64,000 nucleotides of DNA from Haliclona indistincta (lineage: Eukaryota; Porifera; Demospongiae; Haplosclerida; Chalinidae), in contig OZ024785.1 in NCBI GenBank assembly GCA_964017065.1, positions 11,735,086 to 11,799,085 of the forward strand, read 5' to 3'. How positions within the stretch are numbered: position 1 is the first letter of the stretch; each line of letters starts with the position of its first letter. This document shows, piece after piece, positions 44,220-48,424 of this stretch. The position numbers were made by a program, and so were the translations under genes. The notes under the pieces are model-generated. The model saw only the letters and a program-made list of their open reading frames with translations, ran no database searches and was not told where the DNA came from.

Positions 44220-44920
44220 CCCCTCTTTCGTGCTTGGACAGCGATGTAATCATTAATTTCTTGTAATCGTATTTCTGCGTTGTCTCATTTCTTTGTCCTT
44301 TATTTATTCATTTATTATTATTTTTGGTTTGTTTGCTTCGTTGTTATACAAGGACCGTTATCACCTGACAACAGTTTTATTACTTACTCATTGTGTAATA
44401 ACAGTAAATTCACTTCAATAACCAATATTAATTGGATTATACATAAAGGTTGGCATGGGCGGTCTCATAGGAGGGTGGTTTGGCTTAGGAGGTTATAATG
44501 AATTGGGTGGTAGGAGACAAGAGAATCAGCCTGTAAGCTGTTTCACAGTAGTCATGAGACAGCATACACTTCATAGCATACACTTCCTTCTGTCGAATCT
44601 GGAGGACTCTTCTGCCCATGATCGTGCCAGCTAATATGACGTTCTTCCCTGTCAGAAGCAAGTTTTTGTTTTGTAGCTATATACAAGGATGTAAAACCTG
44701 GAGATACTGCATATGATCCATTAGTAATTGCCTCAGATTTGAATGTAAGTTGCCTTTGTATTCATGTGTTATGTCAATCCCTGTATTTGCTTAGTCTCAG
44801 TCTGAGTCCGTGCCAGTGTCTCATTCTCAAGGTTAATTCAATGGCCTTTTACAGAATGCGTTATCAATTGTAAGTTATTGGATTTAAGCATAATAACAAA
44901 ATACATGATGATTTGAGCGC
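44220..44920. other. Intronic/spacer sequence of the kinase gene
   Basis: Mostly non-coding. A short exon-like segment near 44680-44745 reads VKPGDTAYDPLVIASDLN and ends at a GTAAGT donor, so it may be another exon of the host gene. Confidence 0.35.
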
Positions 44921-45007
44921 AGGCTGGGACACGAGCAGCAACTGGAATTAATACTCTGCAAACTCCCAGTACAGAAGCAAGATCTGAGATATGGAGACAA
45001 ATGAATA

Positions 45008-45134
45008 CTGCAGTTTGCAAGTTGGTTGTCATACTCAGTTCGCGAATGCTTGAACGTGTGGTTAACCACAAACGTATTACGGCTTCTCTGTATCACGTAA
45101 TCACAATCACGCGACTAGCGACTCTAATAAGAGC
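45008..45134 (+). repeat. Left terminal inverted repeat of the Tc1-type element
   Basis: 127 bp. It contains TGTGGTTAACCACA (45057-45070), a perfect 14-bp palindrome repeated in the right arm; a transposase-binding site is possible. Confidence 0.95.
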
Positions 45135-45189
45135 ACTCTATAGCTGTTCTGGTGTTACTGGTTGCTGAACTTCTGAACTTGCTTACTCG

Positions 45190-46149
45190 ATGTCTCAAAA
45201 TAACTGTACAGTCGGCAACTTTATTGCAAATGTCGTGAATACTCAATCATTCTCTCCTGGTTCTACTGTCGAGCCCATCGCTTCTCAAGTTCAACGTACA
45301 ACTAAGTACCTTAAGGTAATCAACCCGAGTAATAAGAAAGAATTCACTATGTTCACGCTGAGGAACATCAACTTCAGTCCATCAACTAGTCCTCAAATGT
45401 TGAAGGGGTTTGATGAACTAGGCAGTGAAGTACTCTGCCGTAAGTTAGACTTTGCTCTGGGATATTTTAGGAAATCGACGAAGCTGTGGCTAAACAACGA
45501 AGAAGATGTTCATGATGCATATGATGTGCTACTAAAAACTCAGAAGCTCACATTCTGGTGCATGGGGAAAAAACCACCCAAGTACTATGGAAGTAGTGAA
45601 AATAGTGAAAACGAGGAAGACACTCATGATGGTGTGTCGAGGAGAAGGAGGAGACAGCATACCACTCGGCTTAGTATGCGAGAAAAAAGAACAACTCGTG
45701 TGAAGGAATTAAAAACTCAACTACGTGAAAATCATGGTTCGCGTTATAGTGGTGTTCAATACGCTCTATGGGCAGAGACGATTGTCGCAGGCACACACGA
45801 GAGTTTGGAGGAGCCACCACCAGTGCCGATGTTTGGTGCACAACGACCTCATGGTAACAGTCGTAGCTCTGGCAATCTGACAGAAGCTTTTACGGTCATG
45901 GCTGACAAACTTACCACTGCTTTTACGGCACAACCTAGAAATTCTGCCCTCTCCTCTCCCAGCTCATCATCATACTCATCTCCTAGCAAGTCAGCTGAAC
46001 TGAGAGGCAAGTATTTACAACAATTGCGAGAATTAGTTGAGCTACGTGACATTGGTGCGTTGACTGAAGAAGAATATGAAGAGCAGAGGTTTGGATTAGT
46101 CAACTTAATGAAGAAACTGCACGAGAATGTATTGAAATCACTGAACTGA
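45190..46149 (+). CDS. Accessory ORF1 of the Tc1-type element, unknown function
   Basis: A 319-residue intact ORF from ATG 45190, 56 bp inside the left inverted repeat. Residues about 37-125 (TTKYLKVINPSNKKEFTMF; LDFALGYFRKSTKLWLNNEE; TQKLTFWCMGK) have the strand/helix rhythm of a PB1- or ubiquitin-like domain. Then come an arginine block (RRRRRQHTTR), a conserved-looking RYSGVQYALWAETIVAG, a Ser-rich linker (SSPSSSSYSSPSK) and a C-terminal helix LVELRDIGALTEEEYEEQR resembling the short SHOCT oligomerisation motif. NLS plus adapter-like and oligomerisation modules suggest a DNA- or transposase-binding partner, analogous to the Myb-like second protein of Harbinger elements. This role is inference. 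Confidence 0.85.
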   Translation: MSQNNCTVGNFIANVVNTQSFSPGSTVEPIASQVQRTTKYLKVINPSNKKEFTMFTLRNINFSPSTSPQMLKGFDELGSEVLCRKLDFALGYFRKSTKLWLNNEEDVHDAYDVLLKTQKLTFWCMGKKPPKYYGSSENSENEEDTHDGVSRRRRRQHTTRLSMREKRTTRVKELKTQLRENHGSRYSGVQYALWAETIVAGTHESLEEPPPVPMFGAQRPHGNSRSSGNLTEAFTVMADKLTTAFTAQPRNSALSSPSSSSYSSPSKSAELRGKYLQQLRELVELRDIGALTEEEYEEQRFGLVNLMKKLHENVLKSLN

Positions 46150-46238
46150 TGTCAGGTACCTCTGCCTTACACTAATTGTAGTTATCAATTCTCATTGTAA
46201 ACAAATCAATCAATCATCATGCAATCAACACAAACCAA

Positions 46239-47204
46239 TCAATACATATATCCTGAATGTTGTATGTATCCTAATGTGTCTTGTGGAGTAATTGTGTTAA
46301 AAGCCATTGTAGCTACTGTACGAAGACTAGATGTAGATTGCACAACTAAATTATTATCTCTCCAGTACGATTTGACCTTTGAAAACACTAATTCTATCGG
46401 ATTTAAATCTGGGCTGTAAGGTGGGAGAAACTTGATGAGGGCTCCAATACTTGTGATCATATCAATGACTACATGCACGTGGTGAACTGAGCAGTTGTCC
46501 AATATTACAACTGAGTGACTGTTAGCGCCATTAAAGGGCATCAAAATGGGAAGTAGAGTTGTTCGCACGAAGTCTTCAAACACATCACCATTCACATTTT
46601 CTTCTGTAAGGTATATATCCTCCATTCCCTCCAGTGACATGATAGCAATGGCATTGACAGATCTGTTCCCTACCCTTAGTTGGTAATCAGTTGCACGCAT
46701 ACCTCTCAAGCTGTATCCGTATGCCCTGACAGCATTCCTATGTCTAAAACCAGTCTCGTCAACCCACACTAGCATGCTAGCATCGAAGTTAGAAATGTCA
46801 GCCATAAATTGAGCTCTCATTTCCTCACTACGCTGAAGAGCTATGTGTTGGAGACGTTTTCTTGTAAATCCTAGTCGATGAACTGTGCGACAAATTGTAG
46901 AAATATGTACCCACGTACCAGTAGCATTAAATAACTGCTGTTGTAACTCATAAAGATGTGTTCCAGGCCTGTCTATCAGCGTTTGCAACAGTGTTATTTG
47001 TTCATACTCACTCAAAAGTGGCTCTGGTCCGTGTCTCTGTTCCTTCGGCGCTACATCACCAGTTGATAAGTAGAGCTCAACATATCTTTGCACTGAACGC
47101 TCCGACATTAACAGCAGGTCTGCTATTTCGGCGTATGTCATTCGTCGGAATTGGCGTAACCAAACAGCTCTCCAGCGCAGGTCCGTAGAGTAGTTAGTAG
47201 GCAT
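46239..47204 (-). CDS. DD34E transposase, Tc1/mariner-IS630 type
   Basis: From the minus-strand ATG at 47204 the protein is 321 residues (MPTNYSTDLRWRAVWLRQ). The N-terminal HTH reads TYAEIADLLLMSERSVQRYV, and a second winged-helix-like part runs through GTHLYELQQQLFNATG and ISTICRTVHRLGFTRKRLQH. Catalytic residues are Asp in VWVDETGFRHRN, Asp in VVILDNCSVHH and Glu in PPYSPDLNPIELVFSKVKSY; 34 residues separate the second Asp and the Glu, giving DD34E. No stop or frameshift is present. It cuts and rejoins the element at TA sites. VDETG and PPYSPDLNPIE are typical of IS630-like eukaryotic transposases. Confidence 0.95.
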   Translation of the reverse strand: MPTNYSTDLRWRAVWLRQFRRMTYAEIADLLLMSERSVQRYVELYLSTGDVAPKEQRHGPEPLLSEYEQITLLQTLIDRPGTHLYELQQQLFNATGTWVHISTICRTVHRLGFTRKRLQHIALQRSEEMRAQFMADISNFDASMLVWVDETGFRHRNAVRAYGYSLRGMRATDYQLRVGNRSVNAIAIMSLEGMEDIYLTEENVNGDVFEDFVRTTLLPILMPFNGANSHSVVILDNCSVHHVHVVIDMITSIGALIKFLPPYSPDLNPIELVFSKVKSYWRDNNLVVQSTSSLRTVATMAFNTITPQDTLGYIQHSGYMY

Positions 47205-47294
47205 GTCCTGTTGATACAACGCGCTCTTTTTTTAAACGATACACGTCCACGTGGATAAACCACGCCTTTATCTTGAAACGTACACAATGACTGA

Positions 47295-47411
47295 GCTCTT
47301 ATTAGAGTCGCTAGTTGATTACGTAATACAGAGAAGCCGTAATACGTTTGTGGTTAACCACACGTTCAAGCATTCGCGAACTGAGTATGACAACCAACTT
47401 GCAAACTGCAG
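47295..47411 (-). repeat. Right terminal inverted repeat of the Tc1-type element
   Basis: 117 bp complementary to the left arm, carrying the same TGTGGTTAACCACA palindrome at 47349-47362. Confidence 0.95.
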
Positions 47412-48424
47412 TACTGAACTATCAGCTCTATCAAGGTGCAAACCATGTTTTTATTGCACTGCATGAGTCGAACTATATATGCATGTCACATGCAGGTGTC
47501 GTCACAAGAACTTGGTGGAGCTGATGGGCTTTTGTGTTGATCCACCCATGCTTGTCTACGAGTTCATGGAAAGAGGAAGTTTATACATGCTATTGTTCAA
47601 GGTATGTAGTCTCTGCACAAGCATTGAGTTAACAATAACTATTACTCCATTCATAGCCAGAAAGTCCACCACTAACTTGGAATCAACGCTCGAAAGCAAT
47701 GAAAGATGTTTGCAGAGGACTGCTATGGCTGCACTCTGCAAACATGCTACATGGAGACATAAAATCGTAAAAAAATAAGCTTTGATGTGTTAGTATGATA
47801 GTTTCACTCACAGAAGGAATGTACTTATCGATGGAAACTATACTACCAAACTAGGGGACTTTGGTTTCACAAAACAAATGCCTGCTGCTGTTTCTGAGTC
47901 CATTACTCTGAAGACTACTCATGGAATTGCAAAGACCGCAGGCTATTCTGCTCCGGAAGTGGATTTATCCAAGCATTCATTGAAAACAGATGTATACTCA
48001 TACGGAGTGGTAAGTGCCTGTAATGCACCAATGGCTGTTACAAGTTTAAAAATGCTATCTCGTTGTCGATTTGTATATATTTTTCTATAATTTATAAAGC
48101 TCACTCTGGAGACATTTTCCAACATGCACCCCTATCAGCCTAAGAGAACTGACATCATTTTGGTAAAAATGTTTTTGTCCAGACCTAAAAATTATCATAC
48201 CTATTACTATCAGGTGCAACATCTGGAAGATAATCTCAAAGGCATTTCTGCTTTTGGTCAAGCTGCATGTTCTACTGCTGGAGAATTAGCACCATACTTA
48301 CTCCAACTATACTTCAAGATCGTTACCGAGTGTCTAAAGAAGCATAGTTCTCATCCAATGATTGATCAGGTAACTTTTATGAATAACTTTTGGACTTTTA
48401 ATTTTGCTGTACATTAGGTGATGA

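What the first reader, a model, noticed from the sequence alone, without database searches (positions are those of the whole stretch)
45008..47411. Intact Tc1/mariner-type transposon with two genes
Seen directly: TA flanks, 117-127 bp inverted repeats, a complete DD34E transposase (46239-47204, minus) and a second intact 319-residue ORF (45190-46149, plus), converging with only 89 bp between stops. Established: Tc1/mariner elements typically encode one protein, while Harbinger and similar elements use an accessory DNA-binding partner. Inference: this is a Tc1/mariner lineage that acquired or co-evolved an accessory protein, so its transposition mechanism may need two components.
Basis: partly seen in the sequence, partly recalled or inferred. 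Interest (0 to 1): 0.88.

Follow-up and report, generated by a model that had tools for sequence, protein, structure and literature searches.

The report
Two-gene Tc1/mariner-like transposon lineage
A "jumping gene" in what is probably a sponge genome carries, next to its cutting enzyme, a second protein gene that has stayed with the enzyme as the lineage diversified, so this kind of transposon, usually thought to need one protein, may here work with two.

Summary
The element is 2,404 bp (45008-47411) with 127/117-bp inverted repeats, a TA duplication, an intact DD34E transposase and a convergent 319-codon ORF1. Three paralogous loci on the same contig carry the empty site with one TA, so it is a precise insertion.

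The two-gene layout is the rule in its lineage. Of 74 host loci with at least 240 residues of this transposase, 68 have an ORF1 match within 2.5 kb, against about 0.35% expected by chance. Of 78 paired clusters, 73 are convergent. Near-identical two-gene copies sit at different sites. ORF1 is under purifying selection (dN/dS 0.10-0.21 in the closer subfamily pairs, up to 0.48 in distant saturated ones), and its distances follow the transposase's (0 of 9999 permutations).

ORF1 is predicted to be a PB1 domain, a basic linker, conserved helices and a SHOCT-like hairpin. Best reading: an obligate or strongly helpful transposition partner, working somewhat like Harbinger ORF1. That mechanism is inferred, not tested. 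Ciliate Tc1/mariner-type elements also carry extra genes, so this is a new variant of a known kind; my capped paper searches showed no animal report.

The parts
45006..45007 (.). left TA of the target-site duplication
   Evidence: sequence; empty site with one TA at three loci
45008..45134 (+). left terminal inverted repeat, 127 bp (begins CTGCAGTTTGCAAGTTG)
   Evidence: one search finds the repeat elsewhere in the genome
45190..46149 (+). ORF1, 319 aa, accessory protein
45298..45567 (+). ORF1 residues 37-126: predicted PB1 (ubiquitin-like) domain
45640..45654 (+). ORF1 basic cluster (five arginines, residues 151-155), NLS-like
   Evidence: a basic stretch lies in this linker in the 24 members listed
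45655..45837 (+). ORF1 central conserved helices (LRENHG..YSGVQYALWAE..AGTHESLEEPPPVPMF), no fold match
   Evidence: conservation; searches give no significant PDB match
45982..46143 (+). ORF1 C-terminal helical hairpin, SHOCT-like
   Evidence: Pfam SHOCT E 3e-5, below its cut-off; in 23 of 24 members at E<=1; helices 265-288 and 293-318
46150..46238 (.). 89 bp between the two stop codons
46239..47204 (-). DD34E transposase, 321 aa
   Evidence: Pfam DDE_3 E 6e-30; NCBIfam IS630 157 bits, cut-off 100
46350..46772 (-). transposase catalytic domain (residues 145-285; D149, D236, E271)
46800..46955 (-). transposase second helix-turn-helix (HTH_33-like, residues 84-135)
   Evidence: below its cut-off
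47055..47183 (-). transposase N-terminal helix-turn-helix (HTH_23, residues 8-50)
   Evidence: above cut-off
47295..47411 (-). right terminal inverted repeat, 117 bp
47412..47413 (.). right TA of the target-site duplication

Best explanation
This is a recently inserted copy of a two-component lineage of the IS630-Tc1-mariner group. SHOWN: a unit with inverted repeats and TA duplication, whose two genes have moved together and co-diverged, both under purifying selection. INFERRED: the transposase binds the repeat ends through its own N-terminal helix-turn-helices and does the DDE chemistry. ORF1 is a transposition partner, not a DNA-cutting enzyme. Its PB1 domain and SHOCT-like hairpin would let it self-associate and/or hold the transposase, and its basic linker would bring the complex into the nucleus or onto DNA. 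So ORF1 would act as nuclear carrier and assembly scaffold, working like Harbinger ORF1 though with no sign of kinship to it.
For: Empty site with a single TA at three loci. Linkage: 68 of 74 loci with at least 240 aa of transposase have ORF1 within 2.5 kb, about 0.35% expected under uniform placement; 59 of 64 loci with at least 200 aa of ORF1 have transposase. Three copies 99.8% identical over 2,395 bp with different flanks and ends at TACAG...CTGTA; near-identical copies in other subfamilies too. dN/dS of ORF1 0.10 (window vs C4:6110019) and 0.11 (C1:17081159 vs C2:19173180); transposase of that second pair of elements (C1:17080113 vs C2:19174102) 0.16. Distance matrices correlate at Spearman 0.66, 0 of 9999 permutations. 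PB1 fold. Motif K-K/R-x-K/R anywhere in the protein in 22 of 24 ORF1s but 3 of 21 transposases of the lineage; mean net charge of those 21 is -3.7, against +15 to +27 in four transposases of another lineage of the same genome.
Against: No interaction, expression or activity data. Two 1.7-kb elements with intact transposase and most of ORF1 deleted (identical deletion, different flanks) have moved, so ORF1 is not needed in cis; supply in trans is not excluded. dS is near saturation in many ORF1 comparisons; distant pairs give ratios up to 0.48, and one near-identical pair with a disrupted copy gives 1.31. The window's own ORF1 fails the strict NLS motif (it has RRRRR) and is two residues short in the PB1 first-helix region. 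The charge contrast rests on four controls, three of them close kin; 8 of the 21 transposases are database relatives, most without a shown ORF1 partner; 105 database relatives average +1.8, range -7 to +15; a further control set yielded one protein only (P 0.11). SHOCT failed as an oligomeriser in the one published test (PMC3581485, abstract and passages).
Confidence: 0.68

Rival explanations
1. ORF1 is a regulator rather than a partner: it damps transposition, for example by PB1-based sequestration of the transposase, or blocks host silencing, and so is kept because moderate activity pays.
For: Same linkage and purifying selection. The convergent layout could allow antisense control. ORF1-deleted copies moved.
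Against: A self-limiting gene should be lost often by selfish copies; here only 6 of 74 transposase loci lack an ORF1 match within 2.5 kb, and two of those have a convergent ORF1 piece 6-9 kb away.
Confidence: 0.2
2. ORF1 is passenger cargo for the host or element (a captured PB1 gene) with no role in transposition.
For: PB1 was described as usually not associated with TEs (PMC8616336, one passage).
Against: Carried by subfamilies whose ORF1s share as little as 25% identity with the window's and co-diverged with the transposase; cargo would be expected to be swapped or lost.
Confidence: 0.08
3. The pairing is an assembly or annotation artefact, or two unrelated elements nested by chance.
For: None found.
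Against: Repeats outside both genes, the empty site, and many independent pairs.
Confidence: 0.01

Closest known systems
TBE elements of Oxytricha (Tc1/mariner)
   Same: IS630-Tc1-mariner transposase plus extra genes under purifying selection (dN/dS 0.1-0.3), one of them in reverse orientation (PMC4724952 passages; PMC7325037 section 8; PMC12242761 passages)
   Different: Three genes; extra proteins are 22 kDa (no predicted domain) and 57 kDa (zinc finger and kinase); ciliate germline elements. Here one extra protein with PB1 and SHOCT-like parts, in a probable sponge genome.
Tec, Sardine, Thon, Anchois, Tennessee elements of ciliates
   Same: DD34E/DD35E transposase with accessory ORFs between inverted repeats (PMC3464196 passages; PMC7325037 section 8)
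   Different: Some carry a tyrosine recombinase, others hypothetical proteins; no PB1 or SHOCT part was named in the passages read, and their sequences were not compared here.
PIF/Harbinger
   Same: Two genes, both needed; ORF1 required for nuclear localisation of the transposase and binds the repeats; also mobilises MITEs (PMC2836001 passages)
   Different: Other transposase superfamily, 3-bp target duplication, ORF1 is Myb-like and supplies the DNA binding that its transposase lacks; here the transposase has its own helix-turn-helix match.
Other DDE_3 transposases of the same genome (L069-L072)
   Same: DDE_3 transposase of 334-337 aa, above the IS630 cut-off too in the three scanned
   Different: No ORF1 match; net charge +15 to +27. 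Tc3_2 helix-turn-helix above its cut-off in one and below in two of three scanned. No bounding repeats were found, so they are not shown to be whole elements.
Bacterial IS630
   Same: Transposase scores above the IS630 family cut-off
   Different: No ORF1 relative in prokaryote species genomes by a close-relative scan, and none in 54 viral-contig loci with IS630-type transposase.

Membership tests
IS630-Tc1-mariner superfamily | DDE/D catalytic domain with D..D(34)E spacing and N-terminal helix-turn-helix | tested here: met
   DDE_3 104 bits, HTH_23 28 bits, both over cut-off; D149, D236, E271 invariant in 21 sequences
IS630-Tc1-mariner superfamily | Insertion at TA with TA duplication | tested here: met
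   Empty site with one TA at three loci; TACAG or TACTG at the edge of the best flanking repeat in 25 of 39 two-gene loci (my count)
IS630-Tc1-mariner superfamily | Terminal inverted repeats around the coding region | tested here: met
   for the window; an inverted repeat flanks both genes in 31 of 39 two-gene loci, of which 25 have TACAG/TACTG ends
Tc1 or mariner proper | Tc3_2-type second helix-turn-helix (PF01498) or another subgroup mark (diagnostic recalled) | tested here: inconclusive
   PF01498 absent from the window transposase at E<=1 but 25.7 bits, below cut-off, in lineage member L022, about as in L070 and L071 of another lineage. IS630 cut-off passed by both lineages. No tree with reference Tc1, mariner or IS630 sequences was built.
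Tc1/mariner in its usual form | Transposase is the only protein encoded | tested here: not met
   ORF1 accompanies the transposase at 68 of 74 loci
PIF/Harbinger | Harbinger-type nuclease with 3-bp target duplication and Myb-like ORF1 | tested here: not met
   DDE_3 transposase, TA duplication, no Myb match listed for ORF1
PIF/Harbinger (works like) | Both proteins needed; ORF1 imports the transposase and binds the ends | not testable with these tools
   Needs cell assays; only motif and charge hints
TBE and other ciliate multi-gene elements | Accessory proteins homologous to TBE 22-kDa or 57-kDa proteins | not tested
   Their sequences were not fetched; the described domains (zinc finger, kinase) were not among the Pfam matches of the window ORF1
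PB1 domain family | Ubiquitin-like fold with PB1 topology | tested here: met
PB1 domain family | Pfam PB1 profile | tested here: inconclusive
   Not in the window ORF1; weak in 4 of 24; above cut-off in relatives P0212 and P0232
PB1 domain family | Basic residue in the first strand (type II; recalled) | tested here: met
   K or R at position 42 in the 21 of 24 sequences that have a residue there; 3 have a gap
SHOCT domain | Pfam SHOCT profile at the C-terminus | tested here: inconclusive
   24.1 bits against a cut-off of 27 in the window; matches at E<=1 in 23 of 24

The most novel reading that the evidence does not exclude
An animal branch of the IS630-Tc1-mariner group became an obligate two-component system: the transposase lost its own nuclear-import and DNA-charge functions, and a PB1-SHOCT scaffold protein took them over and polymerises to build the transpososome.
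Probability: 0.35. Interest if true: 0.8.

Novelty: new variant of a known kind. Interest (0 to 1): 0.62.

Why it matters
Tc1/mariner-type elements are the textbook one-protein transposons; the authors of PMC12242761 call accessory proteins in TBEs surprising for the group (passage). A diverse animal lineage in which a second gene is the rule, with an interaction domain described as usually not associated with transposons (PMC8616336, passage), gives a comparative system for asking how a one-protein transposon becomes a two-protein one. Open, recently mobile two-gene copies in several subfamilies make the question testable, and a two-part system could be useful as a gene-delivery tool.

Tried and rejected
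A 14-bp palindrome (TGTGGTTAACCACA) lies in both repeats of the window and first looked like a site for a dimeric ORF1; among 16 elements checked it was found only in the window element, so I dropped it.

I first took the lineage to be IS630-like as opposed to Tc1 proper. The control transposases of the same genome also pass the IS630 cut-off, and a lineage member matches the Tc3_2 profile about as weakly as two controls, so I withdrew that claim.

ORF1 copies of one subfamily (C3:11262186, C3:13633028, C7:12832905) contain two TAA codons and looked broken. In the copy read, the interruption lies in the linker and reads like a 51-nt GT-AG intron; not proven without RNA.

Solved-structure sequence searches gave nothing informative for ORF1 (best E 0.46). 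The C-terminal half alone had no significant PDB match by Foldseek (best E 2.8). Absence of a fold match is not evidence of a new fold.

A charge control from viral IS630 loci failed: of the 33 loci tried (of 54 held) only 1 gave a full-length ORF (net +22; P 0.11 against the lineage), so it is not counted.

In one search one 13-residue ORF1 match (E 0.021) appeared at L053, a transposase-only locus; I treated it as chance.

Literature: no report of an animal or sponge Tc1/mariner element with a PB1 or SHOCT protein appeared in the results listed by the ten searches. Most lists were capped (for example 15 of 2,702, 25 of 114), they cover open-licence papers only, and Repbase was not available; it may hold such elements.

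Full report
The element. Bases 45008-47411 (2,404 bp) are bounded by inverted repeats of 127 and 117 bp that differ by a short indel, with TA on both sides. ORF1 (45190-46149, +) and a DD34E transposase (46239-47204, -) converge with 89 bp between stops.

It is a real and precise insertion. I joined the two flanks at one TA and searched the host genome. Three other loci on the same contig (C3:10790506, 10778687, 11316119) match all 234 bases at 100%, 100% and 99%, and the junction reads AATGAATACTGAAC with a single TA. The reading frame beside the element looks by eye like a kinase exon, so the element probably sits in an intron of one member of a duplicated gene family; the other three have the empty site. 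Flanking pieces are 97-100% identical, which fits an insertion younger than the duplication, although excision from the others cannot be excluded.

Two genes are the rule. A protein search of the genome gave 116 ORF1 matches and 130 transposase matches; the tool calls such counts lower bounds. Merged at 2.5 kb they form 129 clusters: 78 with both genes, 28 with transposase only, 23 with ORF1 only; 73 of the 78 are convergent. The script flagged the other five as not convergent; by reading their coordinates they have the genes back to back, two of them as short fragments, and one (C7:10205918) with a second ORF1 beside it. Restricting to clusters with at least 240 residues of transposase, 68 of 74 have some ORF1 match and 55 have at least 200 residues of it. 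Of the six exceptions, two have a convergent ORF1 piece about 6 and 9 kb away, as if split by an insertion, and four have none within 12 kb. Conversely 59 of 64 clusters with at least 200 residues of ORF1 have transposase. Uniform placement would give about 0.35% (all).

Both genes lie inside the repeats and move together. Of 39 two-gene loci held with some flank, 31 have an inverted repeat outside both genes, and in 25 it has TACAG or TACTG at or within a few bases of its edge; in six the best repeat was something else, and in eight none was found (my count; several flanks were cut short). In one subfamily three full copies with different flanks are 99.8% identical over 2,395 bp and end, within one base, at TACAG...CTGTA; in another, two copies are 99.7% identical over 2,565 bp with the same kind of ends. 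Other near-identical pairs (99.5% over 2,243 bp; 99.0% over 2,625 bp; 97-98% in more) share clean ends at one or both sides, some being cut by the locus edge or truncated on the left. The 99.0% pair belongs to a subfamily with the genes back to back; L021, L022 and L025+L023 form one clade in both trees, which fits a single flip of orientation with both genes kept. Two 1.7-kb copies (C3:3835595, C3:11830801) share an internal deletion that removes most of ORF1 but leaves the transposase open; they have different flanks, so they moved without a whole ORF1 in cis. Of 34 places that carry the window's repeat ends, the window included, 13 are short paired units of 369-743 bp, MITE-like (I entered one orientation per place and dropped matches to the coding part).

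Selection and co-divergence. By a Nei-Gojobori count, ORF1 of the window against C4:6110019 gives dN 0.215 and dS 2.12; C1:17081159 against C2:19173180 gives dN 0.125, dS 1.17, ratio 0.11, with 37, 28 and 118 differences at the three codon positions. The transposases of that second pair of elements give 0.091/0.585, ratio 0.16. Listed were pairs with 150 or more codons and unsaturated dS only. Ratios between ORF1 subfamilies run from 0.10 to 0.48; the higher ones are the most distant, with dS near saturation. Pairs of near-identical copies give 0.15-0.48, and one with a disrupted copy 1.31, the usual pattern of selection on the active line and decay in dead copies (all). For 34 elements with both proteins open over 225 and 250 residues (29 of the 39 held from this genome, 5 from the protein database), collapsed to 21 rows at transposase distance 0.1, the distance matrices correlate at Spearman 0.66 and none of 9999 permutations reaches it. 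Two of those rows (L034, L033) are copies of one subfamily by ORF1.

Mechanism. The transposase keeps helix-turn-helix domains and the catalytic residues, so ORF1 is unlikely to be needed for cleavage chemistry. Of 21 aligned transposases of the lineage (13 from this genome, 8 database relatives, most of these without a shown ORF1 partner), the mean net charge is -3.7 (range -15 to +5) and 3 carry a classical NLS motif; 22 of 24 ORF1s carry one somewhere. Four transposases of another lineage of the same genome are at +15 to +27, with the motif in 3 of 4. The contrast is weaker in the wider set: 105 database relatives of the transposase average +1.8. I read this as a division of labour like that reported for Harbinger, where ORF1 binds the ends and is required for nuclear localisation of the transposase (PMC2836001, passages). 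A PB1 domain with a conserved basic first-strand residue (21 of 21 with a residue there) suggests front-to-back association. These steps are inference.

Comparison with what is known. Extra genes in this superfamily are known in ciliates: TBE (three ORFs), Tec, Sardine, Thon, Anchois (PMC7325037 section 8; PMC3464196 passages; PMC4724952 passages; PMC12242761 passages). PMC12242761 saw no change of DNA binding with TBE accessory proteins in E. coli, and calls accessory proteins surprising for Tc1/mariner. That the host is a sponge is an inference from this. A close-relative scan of prokaryote genomes found no ORF1, and 54 viral-contig IS630-type loci held none. Other DDE_3 lineages exist in the same genome; four such loci were read, each with one transposase ORF of 334-337 aa and no ORF1 match. 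No bounding repeats were found there, so they are controls for the protein, not shown to be whole one-gene elements.

Verdict. The lineage is a new variant of a known kind: a multi-gene IS630-Tc1-mariner element with a different type of accessory protein and, as far as my capped searches show, not reported from animals. Whether both proteins are required is open.

Noticed in passing
window 44886-45007 and 47414-47636: The flanks belong to a sequence present at three more loci on the same contig (C3:10778687, 10790506, 11316119); the neighbouring reading frame looks by eye like a kinase exon, a recently duplicated gene family.
   Followed up: partly
C4:7677329-7679486, C6:12450399-12452565, C7:10205918-10209016: A clade of the same lineage has the two genes back to back instead of tail to tail; TACAG-ended repeats were found around the C6 copy.
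   Followed up: partly
34 places, e.g. C1:6145899-6146303, C2:11350701-11351105, C2:13491854-13492258, C7:3409912-3410316: Short paired copies of the window element's repeat ends (369-743 bp in 13 places; four of exactly 405 bp) look like MITEs that the lineage may mobilise.
   Followed up: partly
C3:11262186-11263055, C3:13633028-13633897, C7:12832905-12833774: ORF1 of a recently amplified subfamily is interrupted by what reads, in the one copy inspected, as a 51-nt GT-AG intron in the linker.
   Followed up: partly
C3:3835394-3837106 and C3:11830604-11832308: Two 1.7-kb elements with the same internal deletion of ORF1 and an intact transposase, at different sites.
   Followed up: yes
L071:384-875 and L072:2368-2799: Beside the other-lineage transposases lie an ORF that looks by eye like a Harbinger-type nuclease fragment and one that looks like a retroelement integrase.
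   Followed up: no
window ORF1 residues around 68-72: The window copy is two residues short in the first helix region of the predicted PB1 domain compared with P0001; this copy may be slightly impaired.
   Followed up: no
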